From Devosia sp. (GTDB lineage Bacteria > Pseudomonadota > Alphaproteobacteria > Rhizobiales > Devosiaceae), in NCBI GenBank assembly GCA_017794705.1, contig CP051235.1, positions 1,551,010 through 1,615,009 on the forward strand: 64,000 nucleotides of DNA, in the 5' to 3' direction. Both the position numbers and the translations under genes were made by a program. Below, piece after piece: positions 1,684 to 39,894 of the stretch. Position 1 is the first letter of the stretch. The number at the start of each line of letters is the position of its first letter. Under the pieces are notes generated by a model. That model made no database searches, was not told the origin of the DNA, and saw only the letters and a program-made list of their open reading frames with translations.

Positions 1684-2583
1684 TTGAAAATCCTCGTTGT
1701 CGGCAAGAGCGGACAGGTGGCCAGGGCCCTATCAGCCCGGGCAGGCATGCGTCCCGGACTGGACCTGATCCATATCGGACGCCCGGAACTTGATCTGGAA
1801 TCGCCGTCAAACTTGTCCGGGATCATGGCGGCGCACGCACCGGACGTGGTCATCAACGCAGCCGCGCATACCGACGTCGACCGGGCCGAGGGCGACCCGG
1901 AACGCGCTCGAGCAATCAACGCCCTTGGCGCGGAACAGATCGCGATGGGGGCGGCAGCGACTGACGCGCCGATCATCCAGATTTCGACGGACTACGTCTT
2001 CGATGGCCAGTTGGATCGGCCCTATGTCGAAGACGATGCACCCACGCCGATCAACGTTTATGGTCACACCAAGCTGGAAGGTGAAAGGCGCGTGGCCGCC
2101 GCCAATCACCGCCACATCATCGCCCGAACTGCCCGGGTCTACTCGCCATGGGGCAAGAACTTCGTCACCACCATGCTGCGCCTCGCGAGAGAACGTGACC
2201 AGGTCTCCGTGGTGAACGATCAATGGGGTAGCCCGACTTCTGCACTTGACCTGGCCGACGCCCTGCTTTCGCTGGCCGACGTTATGCATGCCGCTGCGGA
2301 TCACGATCCGGGGTGGGGGGTGTACCACGTCGCGGGGTCGGGAGCTGCGAGCTGGTTCGATGTCGCCGAAGCCACTTTTGCGGCCCTTCAGGGCCTCGGC
2401 CATCCTGTGCCTAGCCTGAAACCTGTGCCCGCCTCTGCATATCCCACAAACGCAGCACGGCCCAGGCGCTCAGCGCTGACCTGCCGGCGTCTGGCCGACA
2501 AGATGAAGATCGCCCTGCCGGATTGGCGGAAATCGCTTGTTTCCGTCGTCAGAACTGCAGTGATTGAAGACCAACGCGACTAG
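1684..2583 (+). CDS. rfbD: dTDP-4-dehydrorhamnose reductase
   Basis: The 299-residue protein starts at a TTG and carries the RmlD nucleotide-binding motif VVGKSGQVARAL, the VINAAAHTDVDRAE segment, STDYVFDGQ, and the YGHTKLEGE catalytic Tyr-x3-Lys. It reduces dTDP-4-dehydrorhamnose to dTDP-L-rhamnose using NAD(P)H. It closes the rfbCBD set. Its last 35 bases overlap tail-to-tail with the convergent sulfotransferase gene ending at 2549, so the two 3' ends are antisense to each other. Confidence 0.94.
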   Translation: MKILVVGKSGQVARALSARAGMRPGLDLIHIGRPELDLESPSNLSGIMAAHAPDVVINAAAHTDVDRAEGDPERARAINALGAEQIAMGAAATDAPIIQISTDYVFDGQLDRPYVEDDAPTPINVYGHTKLEGERRVAAANHRHIIARTARVYSPWGKNFVTTMLRLARERDQVSVVNDQWGSPTSALDLADALLSLADVMHAAADHDPGWGVYHVAGSGAASWFDVAEATFAALQGLGHPVPSLKPVPASAYPTNAARPRRSALTCRRLADKMKIALPDWRKSLVSVVRTAVIEDQRD

Positions 2584-3379
2584 CCTGCGGCTGACCGTTC
2601 GCAAATTCCGCATAGGAAGACGAGAGCCAGTCCGACAGGTCGAGTCCGGTCAACTCGGCCGTACGCTCGATGTCGCGTGCAAACAGGGCGTCGAGCTGTG
2701 CGCGGGCGGCCCCCTCCATCTGACCGGCTTCGAACCCCTTCAGCGGCAGGATGAATTCAGGGGTGATTGTTGCGGCGAGGCAACCCGGCAGGCCGAGAAA
2801 CGCCTCGATGTGGCTGAGCGTCCCCAACGGGTCGGACCACAATTCATCGTTGCGCAGAAACATCACCTGATCGCGCGGGAAGGACCGCAGCACCCGCTCT
2901 ATCTGCCCGGCATAAAAGCCGCGCTCCACATAAGAGTAGGTGCGATGAACGCCTCCGGGCGCGTCTGCCACCCGCTGTCGGCCCACCTTGGACATTGCAG
3001 CCTCAAACGACAGCGTTTCACGGTTTCGCGCGGTTTCCATGCGCCAATGCGAATAGGCCCGAAAAGACGGATGACGAAGGCTGACGATGATCTTCGCGTC
3101 AGGATTGTAGGCGCGGATCCGATCAAGGGCATTCGGCCAATACGTGTAAATCGGGGTGGCATCGCCTCGGAGCATGCCGGTCAGCGACCAATCGAAATGC
3201 CGGTGCAAGCCCGTCCGGTCCGGATGTGACCAGTTCAGATTTTCATCGTCAAAGTGGTGAGATTCCTTGACGCGGCAAAAATCTATTCCGGGATGCTGTG
3301 AAAGATAGTGGGCCAGCGCCGTTGTTCCGGCCTTTTGGACACCGGCGATGAAAAAATCGATTGGCGCGTGAGCATCCAT
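2549..3379 (-). CDS. PAPS-dependent sulfotransferase
   Basis: The 276-residue soluble protein has the two PAPS sites of the sulfotransferase family: a 5'-phosphosulfate loop, GVQKAGTTALAHYLSQHP, at about residues 13-30, and a 3'-phosphate site, IVSLRHPSFRAYSHWRM, at about 95-115. It also shows F-x-R-N-D-E-L-W, common in heparan-type carbohydrate sulfotransferases. It probably moves sulfate from PAPS onto a sugar of the polysaccharide made by this locus; the acceptor is unknown. It is convergent with rfbD and divergent from the sulfatase at 3436, with only 56 bases between the two starts. Confidence 0.85.
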   Translation of the reverse strand: MDAHAPIDFFIAGVQKAGTTALAHYLSQHPGIDFCRVKESHHFDDENLNWSHPDRTGLHRHFDWSLTGMLRGDATPIYTYWPNALDRIRAYNPDAKIIVSLRHPSFRAYSHWRMETARNRETLSFEAAMSKVGRQRVADAPGGVHRTYSYVERGFYAGQIERVLRSFPRDQVMFLRNDELWSDPLGTLSHIEAFLGLPGCLAATITPEFILPLKGFEAGQMEGAARAQLDALFARDIERTAELTGLDLSDWLSSSYAEFANGQPQASRVGLQSLQF

Positions 3380-11375: not shown

Positions 11376-12218
11376 TCATATTCTCTTGCACATGTAGGAT
11401 TCAGAAGTACTCCTGCGAATTTCTTCAACAGACTCAAGGTCAATAGTTTCAACTTTTTCAAATACGACCAAAAAATCCATGTTGTATGTTGGAATAATTT
11501 TGGTCAATTCCATGTCTATTATTTCCAACTCAGATATGGATTCAACTATCTCGGCAAACGAAATCGGATCGAACCGCCATGAGTGACCAAACCAATTCTT
11601 TGTTGCAGCCGCCCCAGTCCTCATCATTTTTTTAATTTGAAGCCGCCATTCAGGGTATTTTGCGACCCGTTTTCTATCGCCCTCTTCTGGCCCCCAGCCG
11701 CCAACTGTGACGCCTTCCGGTCTGACTGCATAACGCAGTTCGTCTACAAGCGCCGCGAATCTTGCGCTCGTGCGTGCTTCGACATGCGCCTCTAGAACGT
11801 CTCCAAGCGACGACAAGGGTTTCTGTACGTCGAAACAAAGGTTTCGATCGGGAATATAAGCGACGTACCGCCCCCCAACATCAAGCACCGAAGAGACTTC
11901 ATTCAGGTGCCCGACAAAGTTGGGAATGTGCTCGAGTACGTGGGAAGTCAGCACCCAATTGAACTTGCTTTGACCCACGTTTTCGAACAACGATTGATTT
12001 CGATTTAAGACATAGTCGATATGCTCGACGTTGGCTGTGTCTTTACCTTCAGATCTCAGAAGCTGAATTAGTTGCTCAGTGCTTCTCGTCTCGAGATAGC
12101 TGACATCATAGCCTTCACTCTTTCTCACCATTGGATGAACATGTGGGCCAATCTCGAGACCCTTGCCGGTCCCGCCGATGACACTTTTGACTAACGCGAT
12201 CTTCTCGTCTCTTTTCAT
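11376..12218 (-). CDS. SAM-dependent methyltransferase (class I)
   Basis: The 280-residue protein has a class I SAM site: KGLEIGPHVHPMV (motif I), a segment reading the acidic ribose contact near DVSYLE, and WVLTSHVLEHIPN (motif IV/post I) followed by VLDVGGRYVAYIPD. The family is common in O-antigen and capsule loci, where members methylate sugars, but the target is not visible. It overlaps the upstream sulfotransferase by four bases (ATGA). Base composition is clearly more AT-rich than the polysaccharide genes on either side, which points to separate acquisition. Confidence 0.8.
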   Translation of the reverse strand: MKRDEKIALVKSVIGGTGKGLEIGPHVHPMVRKSEGYDVSYLETRSTEQLIQLLRSEGKDTANVEHIDYVLNRNQSLFENVGQSKFNWVLTSHVLEHIPNFVGHLNEVSSVLDVGGRYVAYIPDRNLCFDVQKPLSSLGDVLEAHVEARTSARFAALVDELRYAVRPEGVTVGGWGPEEGDRKRVAKYPEWRLQIKKMMRTGAAATKNWFGHSWRFDPISFAEIVESISELEIIDMELTKIIPTYNMDFLVVFEKVETIDLESVEEIRRSTSESYMCKRI

Positions 12219-12928
12219 CCCGTTTTGTCCGCCTCGTCTGAGCCGTTGGATGTAAGCAAGCTCTTGTAGGATTCGGGCTCCATGAAGCGCACAAGTTCCT
12301 GTTTGTTGTCAGGCTCAGGCATCCCCAAGAAGCCGCTCAGGTCCGAAATGAAGCGCTCCGGGTGCACAATGGCCTTCTCGTAGGAAACCATCATCGTCGG
12401 ATAGTCGTGCCGCTCCGAGAATGAAGTATTCCTCAATTGCTGCAGCGCAACTTCAGAAATTGCGTGGGCGAAACTCCGATTGTGCCAACGCATTTGAGCG
12501 GCACTGGTCGCGACCATATCCCTATAGACGATGATGAAGCGAGGGTTCCTCAGCTTGGTCAGAATCTGATCGAGATAGTTTGCAGCATTCGGAAACTTCC
12601 ATCCCCAAACCGGCAAGCGTGCGTTGCGAGATTCCACCGCTTCCACTAGATGCTTGTAACCTTTTGCGACGAAGTCTGGGTCTTCAAAGTTGTTGGGCAG
12701 GTTCTGACCGATGTTGACGCCCAGCGCCTGCATTAAACCTCCGACCATGGAAGTCCCGCCCCGAGGACATCCAAAGCAAACAAATGTCCGCTCATCGGCG
12801 TTCGCAGATTCGAGTTTTTCGTTGATTATGATCGAGAGGTCCCTCTGCAAGGCCGCACTCCAAATTTTACAGAATCCGGGCGATTCCCCGGCGGTGCAAG
12901 CGATACAGATGGCAAGGCTCAAGCGCAA
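12215..12928 (-). CDS. Sulfotransferase family protein, start uncertain
   Basis: The 237-residue open frame has the PAPS loop FGCPRGGTSMVGGLMQALG and a 3'-phosphate region RFIIVYRDMVATSAAQMRW. No ATG occurs before residue 62, inside the PAPS loop, so the gene must use a non-ATG start; TTG at 12928 gives the full frame and an internal TTG at about residue 27 is an alternative preceded by purine-rich sequence. Either the N-terminus is short or it has been trimmed. It is coupled to the methyltransferase downstream. Likely a glycan or small-molecule sulfotransferase. Confidence 0.72.
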   Translation of the reverse strand: MRLSLAICIACTAGESPGFCKIWSAALQRDLSIIINEKLESANADERTFVCFGCPRGGTSMVGGLMQALGVNIGQNLPNNFEDPDFVAKGYKHLVEAVESRNARLPVWGWKFPNAANYLDQILTKLRNPRFIIVYRDMVATSAAQMRWHNRSFAHAISEVALQQLRNTSFSERHDYPTMMVSYEKAIVHPERFISDLSGFLGMPEPDNKQELVRFMEPESYKSLLTSNGSDEADKTG

Positions 12929-33506: not shown

Positions 33507-33624
33507 CGCTTTTTAGCTGCGCAAGTTGACGCCCGATCCGCTAACTCTATGAAAAATCGTATTTTTCGCGATGCAGAAATTAACGCAATGGCTGGGGATG
33601 GCGCGCAAACCTGCCCGCGAAGGA

Positions 33625-33720
33625 GCCAGAATAACCCCGCCGGAGCGCGGGCATTCAGCTTGCGGCGGGCGTTTGTCTCGGGGAAACGGCGCAGGAATTG
33701 AACTCGTAGCCGCCCACCAG
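33625..33720 (-). repeat. Duplicated 3' end of the cytochrome P450 gene
   Basis: These 96 bases match 35233-35328 with about five mismatches. The match covers the last 20 or so codons of the P450 and 30 bases after its stop. It stands alone upstream of the cyclase gene, far from any P450 start, so it is a gene-tail relic. The match ends exactly where the photolyase-tail copy begins beside the intact P450 gene. Confidence 0.85.
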
Positions 33721-33800
33721 TCATCCAAGCACGCCAATTTGTCCGCGCCATGCAATCATCCACATCGGATCGATTGCAAACTGGCGGTGCCGGACGGATA

Positions 33801-35024
33801 ATGATGTTTCCATTGTGGACTCTGGCAGGAATGTCGTTCTCGTCGATTATCAGCTTCGGAACGGAGCGTTTCCCCGAGGGCGTGGCGCGCAGGTTACGCG
33901 TCGTCAACATGATCTGCTGGATTTCTGCCGCTTCGCTGATGGCGATTTCAATCCGCCGGTTTGCGGAGGGCAACCCGAACTGGGGCCTTGAAGCGGCGAC
34001 TGGTATGCTGGTGTTCGGCGCCATCCCGTTGTTACACCGGTTCGGCTCCTCGGCGGCGCTGCTCACACTCATCGTGCTGGCCTTCATCGATACGTGGCGT
34101 GTCACGGCGGACGGCGGAACAGCCGGTGGCTACTGGCTGGCATACGTGGTGGGCGGTGCGCTGGCGGTGCTGCTGATCGGCCCCGACCGCCCCCTGCTTG
34201 CGGCTCTGCTCGCCTGTCTCGGTGGCGTGGGAGCGATTGCCATACACTTGGCCGTACCGGCTGCAACCGGAGTTCAATCTCCAGAGGACCAGTTTTACTC
34301 GCTGTTGATCAATATTGGCCGGACGCAGGTCCTATTGTTCGCGGTGGCGTTCTTCGGTGCCCGCCAATTGGCCCGCGCCGAGATGGTCGCCGCATTCGAG
34401 CGCGACCGGTCCGATGCGCTGCTGAGCAACATGCTGCCCGCCGCGATCGCTGACCGGCTGAAGAAGCAACCCGAAAAAAAAGTTGCCGACCGGTACGATG
34501 CGGCCTCCGTCCTGTTCGCTGACATGGCGGGGTTCACCAAGCTTACCGAAACAATGACGCCGGACGCGCTGGTGGTTTTTCTTGATGGCGTGTTCTCGAA
34601 GTTCGATCGGCTGGTGGAGGCGCATGACCTGGAAAAAATCAAGACCAGTGGTGATGGCTACATGGTCGTGAGCGGGGTGCCTGAAGCCCGGCCCGATCAT
34701 GCCGAGGCTATGACCCGTCTCGCCCTTGCGATGATGGATGAGGCCGAACATTTCGAGCATGGCGTCAAGATCCGCATCGGGATTGCCTCCGGCCCCGTGG
34801 TGGCCGGTGTTGTAGGCTCGAAGCGGTTCTTTTACGACATCTGGGGCGACGCGGTAAACCTTGCGGCCCGCATGGAGCAAACCGGGGAAACCGGCCGCGT
34901 ACATGTCACCGCAGAAACAGCCCGGCTGCTCCAGGGCAGTTTCAATCTGGAGGCCCGCGGACTCGTCAGCGTAAAGGGCAAGGGTGAAATTGAAACGTTC
35001 TTCGTGTCAGGTCCGGCGGAATGA
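33801..35024 (+). CDS. Membrane-bound class III adenylate cyclase
   Basis: The tandem ATGs at 33801 are a plausible start (407 residues); the frame is open from 33750. The N-terminal half has five to six hydrophobic segments, and a short helix links to the cyclase domain from about residue 215: ASVLFADMAGFTKL (metal Asp), KIKTSGDGYMVV (adenine Lys and metal Asp-Gly) and YDIWGDAVNLAARM (Asp, transition-state Asn/Arg). The Lys and Asp indicate ATP rather than GTP. It would produce cAMP at the membrane. It is flanked by direct copies of the P450 gene tail. Confidence 0.9.
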   Translation: MMFPLWTLAGMSFSSIISFGTERFPEGVARRLRVVNMICWISAASLMAISIRRFAEGNPNWGLEAATGMLVFGAIPLLHRFGSSAALLTLIVLAFIDTWRVTADGGTAGGYWLAYVVGGALAVLLIGPDRPLLAALLACLGGVGAIAIHLAVPAATGVQSPEDQFYSLLINIGRTQVLLFAVAFFGARQLARAEMVAAFERDRSDALLSNMLPAAIADRLKKQPEKKVADRYDAASVLFADMAGFTKLTETMTPDALVVFLDGVFSKFDRLVEAHDLEKIKTSGDGYMVVSGVPEARPDHAEAMTRLALAMMDEAEHFEHGVKIRIGIASGPVVAGVVGSKRFFYDIWGDAVNLAARMEQTGETGRVHVTAETARLLQGSFNLEARGLVSVKGKGEIETFFVSGPAE

Positions 35025-35062
35025 CCGCAACATGCGTGGTAACCACAAGTACGATCGCCTCG

Positions 35063-35233
35063 CCCGGATCAACGTTCCGCGTAGGCCGCGAGCGCCCGTT
35101 GGCGCCCCTCGGAGAGCCCCGCGATCGGCTGCGGATAGTCATCGCCAGACGAAAGTTTCCACGCACGCGGACAGGCCTCAAAGAACGCCAGCGCATCCGG
35201 CCCGCGCTCGGCAGCGCATTCCGCCACCAAGCG
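35063..35233 (-). pseudogene. Duplicated 3' end of a photolyase gene (remnant)
   Basis: These 171 bases match 36648-36818, the 3' end of the intact photolyase gene, at about 82% identity without gaps. The encoded tail keeps GPDALAFFEACPRAWKLSS and EGRQRALAAYAER with a TGA at 35069-35071, and substitutions are mostly conservative. It therefore comes from a real homologous gene, not from a recent copy of this one. The rest of that gene is absent; the copy abuts the post-stop sequence of the P450 gene at 35233. Confidence 0.82.
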
Positions 35234-35262
35234 CCAGAATAACCCCACCGGAGCGCGGGCAT

Positions 35263-36483
35263 TCAGCTTGCGGCGGGCGTTTTTCTCAGGGAAATGGCGC
35301 AGGATTTGAACTCGTAGCCGCCCACCAGGTTGCTCCAGCCCAGTTCCGGCGTGCCGGCGATGCCGAGACCGTCGAGACGGAGCAGCGCATCGAGGAAGAT
35401 GGCGCTTTCCTGTATGGCGACATAGGCGCCGGGGCAGCGATGACGGCCGTCGCCGAATGACATGGCGGGCCTGCCGGTTCTTGGGTCGGGCAGCACCCGG
35501 TCGGGGTCGGCGTGGAAGGGGCACTTGCCCACCGCCGCTTCATCGGCGTTGGTTGAACGCACATCGACGGTGAACTCCTGGCCGGGCGCCACCGATTCTC
35601 CATCCGGCAGGGTGAACGGGGCGACAGCCCGACGGCGCAATCGGCCAATCACCGGTTCAAGCCGAAGGATTTCTTCCAGGATATCCCGCTGGCCCGCGTC
35701 GTTGGCGGCAAGGAAGCGCTGCCGCAGCGCGGCATTTTCAATCAGATGAATGCCGGCGATAGTGATGAATTCGCGCGTCGTCACCATGCCGGCGGCACCG
35801 TACAGCACGCATTCGGTCAGAATTTCATTGGTCTTGTAGCCCTGCGCAAGCAGGTGCGAGATCACATCGTTGCGTGGCGCGGTGCGGCGCGTTCTGACGC
35901 TGGGGCGCACGTCCATCAGATAGAATATGCCGAGTTTGACCTGGCTGGTGAACATGCGCCAGACGAGCCGCGGCGACATCGGCAGGTCGATCGGCGGGTT
36001 GGAAAGGAACGTCAGAATGCGACGCGGCATGCCCGGCGCCGTGTGCTCGGTCAGCCCTACTATCTCGGCGGCCACCGTAACGGCCAGGTCCATGGCCATG
36101 GCATCCAGCCGGCCCTCGCCTTTTTCAACGAGGTCGCCGATCAGCCGCTGTGTCTCGCGTTCGATAAGTTCCCGGTAATTGTCCTCGCAGGCCCGCGGGG
36201 TGAAGAACCGTGCCGTGCCACGGCGCATCTGCTGATGTTCCTCGCCTTCGAGAAACAGCATGGGCAGGCGCATCAGCGAGCGCATGTTGCGGGTAATGTC
36301 GGCGCCGAACCCGGACTGCTCGACTTCCTGTGCCCGCAGCACGGCGCGCGCCAGCTCATGGGAATGGATGTGCAGCGTGCCGTCCCCGTCGCGGCTGCTC
36401 GCCGGTTGCGCGGACCACCCCGCCAGCGCAGCGGTGCGCCGGTCGTCGCGGGCAGGATCGATATCGGCGAGAAGCTCGGTCAT
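35263..36483 (-). CDS. Cytochrome P450
   Basis: The 406-residue soluble protein has the haem-ligand motif FGDGRHRCPGAYVA with the proximal Cys, an E-x-x-R equivalent in EILRLEP, and an I-helix segment YGAAGMVTTREFITIAG. It resembles bacterial class I P450s, which take electrons from a ferredoxin and reductase; neither is encoded nearby. The substrate is unknown. The gene is bracketed by direct copies of a photolyase 3' end, which suggests that it arrived as a cassette. Confidence 0.93.
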   Translation of the reverse strand: MTELLADIDPARDDRRTAALAGWSAQPASSRDGDGTLHIHSHELARAVLRAQEVEQSGFGADITRNMRSLMRLPMLFLEGEEHQQMRRGTARFFTPRACEDNYRELIERETQRLIGDLVEKGEGRLDAMAMDLAVTVAAEIVGLTEHTAPGMPRRILTFLSNPPIDLPMSPRLVWRMFTSQVKLGIFYLMDVRPSVRTRRTAPRNDVISHLLAQGYKTNEILTECVLYGAAGMVTTREFITIAGIHLIENAALRQRFLAANDAGQRDILEEILRLEPVIGRLRRRAVAPFTLPDGESVAPGQEFTVDVRSTNADEAAVGKCPFHADPDRVLPDPRTGRPAMSFGDGRHRCPGAYVAIQESAIFLDALLRLDGLGIAGTPELGWSNLVGGYEFKSCAISLRKTPAAS

Positions 36484-36653
36484 GGCTTCGCCCCCTTTTG
36501 CCGCAGCAGGTCACCGGGCAGACCGGTTCACGTTCCTGCCAGATCTTTCCTCACAGCCTAGCATGGCTGCAAAGGGCCGAAAATCGCCAATTGGGTGCAT
36601 GGGTGGCCGCGAATTCGGAGCACGACATGAGGCGCGTTGCGCATCGACCCGGA

Positions 36654-38066
36654 TCAACGTTCCGCGTAGGCAGCAAGCGCCCGTTGGCGCCCTTCGGCGA
36701 GCCCCACGACCGGCTGGGGATAGTTATCGTCGGGCGAGAGGTTCCATGAGCGGGGACAGGCGTCAAAGAATGCGAGCGCATCCGGACCAGGCTCGGTTGC
36801 GCGTTCAGCCACGAAGCGACGAACATAGTCACCGTCAGGATCGAACTTTTCGGCCTGGGTTTCAGGGTTGAAGATGCGGAAGTAAGGCGCGGCATCCGGT
36901 CCGGATCCGGCCACCCACTGCCAGCCCATGGCGTTGGAGGCCGGGTCCCAGTCGGTCAGGCATTCCTCGAACCATTTTTGCCCGGTGCGCCAATGCTTGA
37001 GCATATGTTTGGTCAGATATGAGCCCACGATCATGCGGCCCCGATTGTGCATCTGGCCGGTCACATACATTTCGCGCATGGCGGCATCGACAAGGGGAAT
37101 GCCGGTCCGGCCCTGTTTCCATCGCAGCACCGCTTCGTCTTCTTCCCCGGACCAGGGGAAATCATCCCATTCGGGACGCCAGTTTTCGGTGGTGATTTGC
37201 GGGGTGTGATAAACGAGATGATAGGCGAACTCGCGCCAGACCAGTTCCTTGAGGAAGTGCTCCGCACCGCTGCGCCCATCAAGTTGCGCATGCATCCCGG
37301 CATGCCAGATTGTGCGCGGCCCGATCTCGCCCCAGGCGAGATTTTCGGACAGGCGCGAGGTGGCCTGTTCGGCAGGATAGTCCCGGCGGCTCTTGTACGT
37401 GTCGATCGGTCCATCGAGAAACTCGGCCAGCCGTGCGCTCGCCGCAGTTTCGCCGACGCAGGCGTGACCGGCCAGAACAGCAGCGCCGCGATTCATCGCC
37501 TTGCCCAGTGCCCAGTCCGCAAGCGCTTCGCTTTGGGGCCAATCATCCGGCGCCTGCAGCCGCTCGGGCGCGGGTTCAGGCATGGGCACGTTCACATCCT
37601 TCACCGCCCGCCACATGGGCGTATAGACCTTGAAGTATCCGCCCTGTTTGGTTGAAACCGTCCAGGGCTCAAAAAGCACATGGCCGGGATGGCTTTTGGC
37701 CGTGATGCCGGCGTCTTTCAGCGCCGCCTTGACGCCCTTGTCCCGCGCAATGGCATCGGGATCATAGGCGCGGGTCCACCAGACGTCTCCCGCCCCGGTT
37801 TCCCGCGCCAGCTTCAACAGCACATCCCTTGCGTTCCCCCGGCGCAAGACCAGCCGCGACCCCATCTGCTCCAGCCGATCGGCAAAGTGGCGGACTGCCT
37901 GCTCAAGACGCCACTTGGGGGCGGCGCCGTATGTTTCGGCAACTTCATCGAGCACGAACACGGGGATCAGCGGCTGTCCGCTTGCGGCTGCCCAGGCCAG
38001 CGCCGGATGGTCCGCGAGCCGGAAATCGCGCCGGAACCACACGATGATCGGCGTCGCATCATCCAT
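36654..38066 (-). CDS. phrB: Deoxyribodipyrimidine photolyase
   Basis: The 470-residue protein has the N-terminal antenna domain (IIVWFRRDFRLADHPAL) and the C-terminal FAD domain with HFLKELVWREFAYHLVYH, GRTGIPLVDAAMREMYVTG, HNRGRMIVGSYLTKHML and WDPASNAMGWQWVAGSGPDA. These are the class I CPD photolyase motifs. It repairs UV cyclobutane dimers with blue light. Its last 57 or so codons are duplicated at 35063-35233. Confidence 0.94.
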   Translation of the reverse strand: MDDATPIIVWFRRDFRLADHPALAWAAASGQPLIPVFVLDEVAETYGAAPKWRLEQAVRHFADRLEQMGSRLVLRRGNARDVLLKLARETGAGDVWWTRAYDPDAIARDKGVKAALKDAGITAKSHPGHVLFEPWTVSTKQGGYFKVYTPMWRAVKDVNVPMPEPAPERLQAPDDWPQSEALADWALGKAMNRGAAVLAGHACVGETAASARLAEFLDGPIDTYKSRRDYPAEQATSRLSENLAWGEIGPRTIWHAGMHAQLDGRSGAEHFLKELVWREFAYHLVYHTPQITTENWRPEWDDFPWSGEEDEAVLRWKQGRTGIPLVDAAMREMYVTGQMHNRGRMIVGSYLTKHMLKHWRTGQKWFEECLTDWDPASNAMGWQWVAGSGPDAAPYFRIFNPETQAEKFDPDGDYVRRFVAERATEPGPDALAFFDACPRSWNLSPDDNYPQPVVGLAEGRQRALAAYAER

Positions 38067-39390: not shown

Positions 39391-39803
39391 GATTGGCCCG
39401 AAACGGGCACGCACACATGAAGTGCAACCGGTAATGGCGCGATGCTTGACGCATTTTGCTGCGTAGCCCTGCGGCTGACATACGATTGGCGCCGACATCA
39501 CAAGTATGCCGCAGTGCTTGCCAGAGGGGCCCGGTCGCCGTGTTGATAAGCGTGCGAACGCTCGAGCGGCAGCATCATGGAATCGCCAGAGAAGTCAACA
39601 GCAACCAGCAGTGCGCCGCCAGGATTCTTGCTGTTGGCCCCTAAAGTACTGAAGTCACGGCATTCCCCCGACTTGGTCCACAAAGGCAGGGGCCGACGCC
39701 TGGACCATCTCCCGGTTCCCCGAACCGCGAACACTTCGTCCGCCCGCTTCCTGTGCGTGACAGGCTTTACCCAAAAATGGAGGGGAAATTTGAGGCTCAG
39801 GTG
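39391..39803. other. Gap between DUF475 gene and tRNA-Ser
   Basis: This 413-bp stretch has a possible 78-codon minus-strand frame at 39498-39734 ending LPLERSHAYQHGDRAPLAS, with no recognisable family and no good ribosome site. It may be a small gene, but base use does not decide. Nothing else was seen; no integrase fragment or direct repeat of the tRNA 3' end was found. Confidence 0.35.
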
Positions 39804-39894
39804 TGGCGGAGAGAGAGGGATTCGAACCCTCGAGACGGTATCACCGCCTACACACTTTCCAGGCGTGCGCCTTCGACCACTCGGCCATCTCTCC
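39804..39894 (-). tRNA. tRNA-Ser (anticodon GGA)
   Basis: The minus strand gives a 91-nt class II tRNA: acceptor GGAGAGA pairs with TCTCTCC, D-arm TGGCCGAGTGGTCGAAGGC, anticodon stem CACGC/GTGTG with loop CTGGAAA (anticodon GGA at 39860-39858), a long variable arm, T-arm with GGTTCGAATCC, discriminator G and an encoded CCA at 39806-39804. The long variable arm and G73 identify serine; it reads UCC and UCU codons. Confidence 0.97.

What the first reader, a model, noticed from the sequence alone, without database searches (positions are those of the whole stretch)
33625..36818. Nested gene-tail duplications around cyclase, P450 and photolyase
A 96-bp P450 tail (33625-33720, about 95% identical to 35233-35328) lies before the cyclase. 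A 171-bp photolyase tail (35063-35233, about 82% identical to 36648-36818) lies after the P450. Cyclase and P450 are thus each bracketed by direct copies of a gene 3' end, and the breakpoints of both repeats coincide near 35233. Restored 3' ends resemble integration scars, yet no integrase is present; two rounds of insertion or replacement with DNA from a relative are suggested.
Basis: seen in the sequence. Interest (0 to 1): 0.7.

Follow-up and report, generated by a model that had tools for sequence, protein, structure and literature searches.

The report
Two versions of one locus, fused
In one bacterial chromosome, copies of a P450 gene's end and of a photolyase gene's end alternate along a cyclase gene and an intact P450 gene; the pattern likely records two alternative versions of one locus joined head to tail after cyclase DNA was probably imported from a relative, which would be an ordinary if instructive scar of gene transfer.

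Summary
The repeats are real: 96 nt of P450 3' end plus terminator-like hairpin (33625-33720 and 35233-35328, 5 mismatches) and 171 nt of photolyase 3' end (35063-35233 and 36648-36818, 27 mismatches). No further copy was found in the genome. They are interleaved, not nested: P450 tail, cyclase, photolyase tail | P450 tail, P450, photolyase tail, photolyase. Position 35233 is one sharp joint, so the coincidence of breakpoints needs no second cause. The repeats differ in age. The photolyase tails differ mainly at third codon positions (dS 0.49, dN 0.12), so the extra tail came from a diverged, once functional photolyase; the P450 tails show no silent change. I read this as recent import of a cyclase-photolyase' piece, guided by photolyase homology, giving a cyclase version of the locus that was then joined to the P450 version. 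A single insertion with a 96-nt target duplication is the main rival; two tail-targeted integrations or plain tandem duplication fit worse. Cyclase, P450, DUF475 and this photolyase type are rare or absent in the relatives searched and lie beside a tRNA-Ser whose other flank is kept in 6 of 7 relatives read. No strain with a single version was found, so the path is inferred. Known kind; modest interest.

The parts
33625..33720 (-). Extra P450 3' end with terminator-like hairpin (P450 tail B)
   Evidence: 95% to 35233-35328; 4 residue-changing differences, 0 silent, in 22 codons; hairpin 33651-33636
33720..33721 (.). Joint 1: P450 tail / upstream of cyclase (sharp)
   Evidence: next 40 nt unrelated to the P450 continuation (6 of 40 identical)
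33750..35024 (+). MASE7 + Guanylate_cyc class III cyclase; start more likely at 33801 (407 aa, as in P0241)
   Evidence: Pfam PF20967 and PF00211; 0 of 135 other family genomes at 1e-60
35063..35233 (-). Extra photolyase 3' end (photolyase tail B), 54 codons plus stop in open frame
35232..35233 (.). Joint 2: inside photolyase' / just past the P450 hairpin (sharp)
35233..35328 (-). P450 3' end with terminator-like hairpin (P450 tail A), end of the intact gene
35263..36483 (-). Cytochrome P450, 406 aa, open, heme motif FGDGRHRC
   Evidence: PF00067; motif; nearest full-length relative 81%
36648..36818 (-). Photolyase 3' end (photolyase tail A), end of the intact gene
36654..38066 (-). Photolyase, 470 aa, open, of the type found in Roseobacter-group bacteria
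   Evidence: PF00875 and PF03441
38320..39501 (-). DUF475 / TerC-family membrane protein, accessory neighbour
   Evidence: 0 of 36 other relatives at 1e-30
39804..39894 (-). tRNA-Ser(GGA), border between a conserved flank (right) and a variable flank (left)

Best explanation
The locus holds a cyclase unit and a P450 unit in tandem, each bounded by the same two gene tails, and this is likely the head-to-tail fusion of two alternative versions of one locus, one of which was probably built with DNA imported from a relative. Shown: the four tail copies, their order (P450 tail B, cyclase, photolyase tail B, then P450 tail A, P450, photolyase tail A, photolyase), two sharp joints, and unequal divergence of the two repeats. 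Inferred step 1: the ancestor carried sugar-transporter flank, P450, photolyase; a DNA piece with cyclase next to a diverged photolyase' entered from a relative and recombined through photolyase homology on one side and without homology inside the P450 3' end on the other (joint 1), leaving of P450 only the 96-nt tail: a cyclase version. Inferred step 2: the cyclase version and the original P450 version, present in one cell or reunited by transfer, were joined without homology at 35232/35233 (joint 2). Since then the two leftover tails would have drifted as dead sequence, while P450, photolyase and cyclase stayed open.
For: Interleaved order with a shared joint at 35233. No further copy in the genome. 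Photolyase tails: 18 of 28 coding differences at third positions (binomial P 0.0008), dS 0.49, dN 0.116, 13 residue changes against 18.3 expected for random changes (P 0.014), frame open although 56% of random sets would bring a stop. Polarised on 29 photolyases of family f74: tail A holds the commoner base at 15 of 28 sites and tail B at 13, so tail B is not simply a decayed copy of A; at codon positions 1 and 2 tail B is the changed one at 8 of 10 sites, as some recent decay would give (P 0.055). P450 tails: no silent change on 16.3 silent sites; if as old as the photolyase split the chance of none is 0.0007-0.002. Overall divergence differs, 27/171 vs 5/96, P 0.010. Drift at 5/96 predicts about 8 decay changes in the photolyase tail, of the size of tail B's excess. 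Guidance by homology: a random same-orientation landing within 1.6 kb of photolyase has a chance near 0.0005 (uniform landing assumed). Precedent for duplications beside incoming DNA: 109-950 bp in 14 sequenced E. coli clones, ascribed there to a single crossover by a re-circularised molecule (PMC3240628, section 12 read).
Against: No genome with a cyclase-photolyase pair, or with a cyclase-only or P450-only version of this locus, was found, and the relatives drawn include none of the same genus. The 13 family-f74 photolyase regions read (4.8-19 kb) lack cyclase, P450, DUF475 and the sugar SBP, so the supposed donor order is not seen. The tests rest on 28 and 5 differences. The P450 tail lies mostly in a C-terminus that varies among homologs, which weakens the age comparison. 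Two illegitimate joints are needed; only one base is shared at joint 2. Whether the intact photolyase is itself a mosaic, as step 1 allows, was not tested. The similarity CCGCC(C)ACCA before both joints is weak (0.013 of random pairs score as high; chosen after seeing it).
Confidence: 0.45

Rival explanations
1. One insertion with a long target duplication: a foreign piece of about 1.5 kb (33721-35232: cyclase plus the end of a photolyase') was inserted into the P450 3' end without homology, and 96 nt of target were duplicated.
For: One event explains all four copies and both ages; the pattern is described for restriction-modification genes in Helicobacter pylori (Nobusato et al. 2000, not read; cited in PMC1643837, passages read).
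Against: Does not explain why a piece carrying a photolyase' tail landed 1.4 kb from photolyase in the same orientation (chance about 0.0005). No Ku gene was found in this genome (93% complete) for simple end joining.
Confidence: 0.25
2. Two integrase-type events, each restoring a gene 3' end as the e14 prophage does at icd: P450 into the photolyase end, cyclase into the P450 end.
For: Tails are in frame and run to the stop codons; e14 displaces a 163-bp icd tail (PMC6379469, passages read); one relative has an integrase-like frame beside the same tRNA-Ser.
Against: Interleaved order: photolyase tail B lies inside the segment bracketed by P450 tails, so the events are not independent; no integrase among 15 window proteins scanned, cyclase and P450 included.
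Confidence: 0.1
3. In-genome tandem duplication of photolyase tail plus P450, then replacement of one P450 body by the cyclase.
For: The a-b-a-b order and near-equal repeat spacings, 1608 and 1585.
Against: Predicts equal ages and neutral decay; observed 27/171 vs 5/96 and a third-position excess in the photolyase tails. Gene conversion of the P450 tails could rescue it.
Confidence: 0.12
4. Assembly or binning error.
For: Reads are not held, so it is not excluded; completeness is given as 93%.
Against: One 3.31-Mb contig; the copies differ by 5% and 16%, unlike a doubled read.
Confidence: 0.03

Closest known systems
Insertion with long target duplication (Nobusato et al. 2000, not read; known here from passages of PMC1643837 and PMC3154945)
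   Same: Gene insert bracketed by long direct copies of target sequence, with no transposase or integrase seen here
   Different: There the cargo is often restriction-modification genes; here the insert also carries a diverged tail of a neighbouring gene, giving two interleaved repeats
Duplications left when incoming DNA integrated at lacZ in E. coli conjugation (PMC3240628, section 12)
   Same: Incoming DNA with homology to the target leaves a 109-950 bp duplication; in the separate illegitimate class 3 of 4 joints had no homology and 1 had 1 nt
   Different: Laboratory plasmid, duplication ascribed to one crossover by a circle; no second allele kept in tandem
e14 prophage at icd (PMC6379469, passages)
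   Same: Displaced protein-gene 3' end of similar length (163 bp)
   Different: A prophage lies between the copies; a single pair of tails, not two interleaved pairs; no such element here

Membership tests
Insertion with long target duplication | Insert flanked by direct copies of target sequence much longer than transposon duplications | tested here: met
   96-nt direct copies bracket cyclase plus photolyase tail
Insertion with long target duplication | Empty site with a single copy in a close relative | tested here: inconclusive
   No same-genus genome among those drawn; none of seven relatives read has the block at this tRNA
Integrase-mediated 3'-end restoration (e14/icd type) | Recombinase gene in the inserted element | tested here: not met
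   Between the tail copies Pfam names only the cyclase and the P450
Integrase-mediated 3'-end restoration (e14/icd type) | A pair of tail copies at the two ends of each insert, independent of other inserts | tested here: not met
   Interleaved a-b-a-b order
Simple tandem duplication | Both repeated parts equally diverged | tested here: not met
   27/171 vs 5/96, P 0.010; third positions 18/54 vs 1/21, P 0.016
Transposon target-site duplication | Short duplication with transposase and terminal inverted repeats | tested here: not met
   Duplication is 96 nt; no transposase among 15 proteins scanned; one search found no inverted repeat of 30 nt or more at the insert ends (shorter ones were not sought)

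The most novel reading that the evidence does not exclude
The interval between the P450 terminator and the photolyase 3' end is a swap slot: relatives keep different single genes there, exchanged through the flanking gene tails without any dedicated recombinase, and this genome has stacked two occupants.
Probability: 0.1. Interest if true: 0.6.

Novelty: new member of a known kind. Interest (0 to 1): 0.3.

Why it matters
If the reading holds, the tails are a small fossil record: their different codon-level divergence separates when two lineages split from when their DNA was joined, and shows accessory genes being stacked at one locus with no integrase or transposase in sight. It is a clean worked example, not a new system.

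Tried and rejected
Tandem duplication of one unit: rejected as sole cause because the repeats differ in age. Transposon or cassette array: no recombinase among 15 proteins scanned. tRNA-anchored island with a repeated tRNA end: the 23-nt tRNA-Ser 3' piece occurs once in the window at up to 3 mismatches. Simple end joining by Ku: none in this genome (among 14 control genomes only Bacillus subtilis rang). Donor search by photolyase neighbours: none of 13 family-f74 regions has cyclase, P450, DUF475 or the sugar SBP (L177 has a 56% relative of a window ABC ATPase). Of 136 loci held, two besides the window's own matched more than one of eight query proteins: L075 (P450 43%, sugar permease 31%) and the actinobacterial L129 (P450 42% and photolyase 39%, about 6 kb apart), which I took for distant chance neighbours. 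Plasmid records: 17 photolyase hits at 1e-100 (best 62%), 4 cyclase hits at 1e-70 (43-44%), no P450 at 1e-90, and two DNA matches covering 3% of 33600-36900. P450 scan of genome contigs: none with the single protein; with the alignment the best 80 of 431 loci, of which the best two (68%, 59%) have neither photolyase nor cyclase within the 20 kb held. Gapped similarity around both joints: chance (0.27). Promoter scan: 1 site against 1.1 expected. Literature: partial gene duplication with four further terms, 0 papers; MASE7, 0 papers; double illegitimate recombination, 1 listing, not read.

Full report
What is there. On the minus strand the genes run photolyase (36654-38066), P450 (35263-36483), then a second photolyase 3' end (35063-35233), a cyclase on the opposite strand (33750-35024) and a second P450 3' end (33625-33720), followed by a sugar-transporter solute-binding gene. 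A whole-genome search with 35063-35328 gives three matches, all of them these copies.

Order. On the plus strand the copies run P450 tail, photolyase tail, P450 tail, photolyase tail: interleaved, not nested. Photolyase tail B touches P450 tail A at 35232/35233, and the 40 nt beyond each sharp edge are unrelated (12, 12 and 6 of 40 identical). The 3' side of the photolyase similarity ends about 15-20 nt after the stop codon (shuffle P 0.015 at 15 nt, 0.029 at 20, 0.058 at 25, 0.18 at 30), as expected for a natural gene end. So there are two sharp joints, not four breakpoints. The P450 repeat ends just past a terminator-like hairpin; that scan found 11 such sites against 5.1 expected, so single sites are weak evidence.

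Ages. The photolyase tails differ at 28 of 165 coding positions, 18 of them third positions; dS 0.49, dN 0.116 over 162 nt. Random changes of the same number would alter 18.3 residues on average, 13 were altered (P 0.014), and 56% of random sets would bring a stop. Against 29 photolyases of family f74, tail A carries the commoner base at 15 sites and tail B at 13 (with the ten nearest: 14, 12 and 2 ties); at positions 1 and 2 tail A does so at 8 of 10, at position 3 tail B at 11 of 18. Three of tail B's 13 residue changes are to residues absent from 119 database homologs. The tails are nearer to each other (82.7%) than either is to any of the 29 (at most 70.4%). I read tail B as part of a photolyase that stayed functional in another lineage and decayed only lately. 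The P450 tails differ at 4 of 66 coding positions, all altering residues, and once more in the remaining 30 nt. At the photolyase silent rate the chance of no silent change on 16.3 sites would be 0.0007, or 0.002 after allowing for two decay changes. Against this, the P450 C-terminus varies among homologs, so the comparison is weaker than the number suggests.

Origin of the genes. The genome's family is taken to be that of Devosia: G498 contig 14 and the Devosia MAG contig JANXSI010000302.1 have the same length, 22812, and the same 68% P450 match. At 1e-60 the P450 is found in 3 of 136 family genomes including this one (the others 68% and 59%) and in 4 of 397 drawn from the order including this one (best other 47%). 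The cyclase is found in 1 of 136 family genomes at 1e-60 and 1 of 387 of the order at 1e-85, in both cases this one. DUF475 at 1e-30 is found in 1 of 37, this one. Photolyase matches exist in 30 of 61 genomes including this one, the others at 39-48% for their best match, whereas database hits reach 77% and the named ones among the 120 listed are largely Roseobacter-group genera. At 1e-150 four of 384 other genomes of the class match, all in one family, f74, and at 1e-205 25 of 384 f74 genomes; f74 contigs match in length those that carry photolyases named Falsiruegeria litorea and Maritimibacter sp. 55A14, so f74 is the Roseobacter-group family; its formal name is recalled, not tested. Third-position G+C is 0.73 for cyclase, 0.72 photolyase, 0.70 DUF475 and 0.78 P450, against 0.78-0.82 for eight of nine other window genes and 0.74 for gatZ: mild support only.

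Site. A tRNA-Ser(GGA) lies at 39804-39894. It was sought in 12 relatives and seven of these were read with surroundings. Stretches of the window's right side (40-49 kb) lie on the same side of it in 6 of 7, L205 being the exception; the DUF475-to-SBP block is found in 0 of 7. On the left side there are only weak or domain-level matches to window genes from elsewhere: ABC ATPases in L201, a 29% transporter in L199, two-component genes in L203, a sensor in L204. The left sides differ among the relatives except for a stretch shared by L199 and L202 (56% over 120 aa), with a weaker one in L200. In L200 an integrase-like frame lies 64 nt from the tRNA (Pfam DUF6538; its catalytic H-x-x-R...Y pattern is read by eye and recalled). 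The tRNA end is not repeated in the window, so no island border is proven.

Mechanism. All four copies follow if a piece carrying cyclase and a diverged photolyase' end entered the P450-photolyase locus. A random insertion would land in the right orientation within 1.6 kb of photolyase with a chance near 0.0005, so I favour a route through photolyase homology: first a cyclase version of the locus, with P450 lost but for its tail, then head-to-tail joining with the P450 version. This costs one more step than a single insertion with a 96-nt target duplication. Both share the import and the two joints; strains with single versions would decide. Precedents: insertion with long target duplication (passages of PMC1643837 and PMC3154945; original not read), duplications of 109-950 bp beside incoming DNA in E. 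coli (PMC3240628, section 12 and passages), e14 at icd (passages of PMC6379469), and genes with flanking repeats in Arabidopsis (passages of PMC2869330).

Verdict. The event is of a known kind, with an instructive interleaved pattern.

Noticed in passing
39484-39542 (-): terC RNA motif (Rfam RF03067, 49.8 bits against a gathering score of 39.9) directly upstream of the DUF475/TerC-family gene.
   Followed up: no
39804-39894 (-): tRNA-Ser(GGA) whose right-hand neighbourhood is kept in 6 of 7 relatives read while the 3' side differs; a likely insertion hotspot, with an integrase-like frame there in L200.
   Followed up: partly
2549-3379 and 12215-12928 (-): Two sulfotransferase-family genes in what looks, by its neighbours, like a surface-polysaccharide gene cluster at the left of the window.
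   Followed up: no
36654-38066 (-): The photolyase is of Roseobacter-group type (up to 77%) in a Devosia-family genome; relatives that have one carry a different photolyase at 39-48%.
   Followed up: partly
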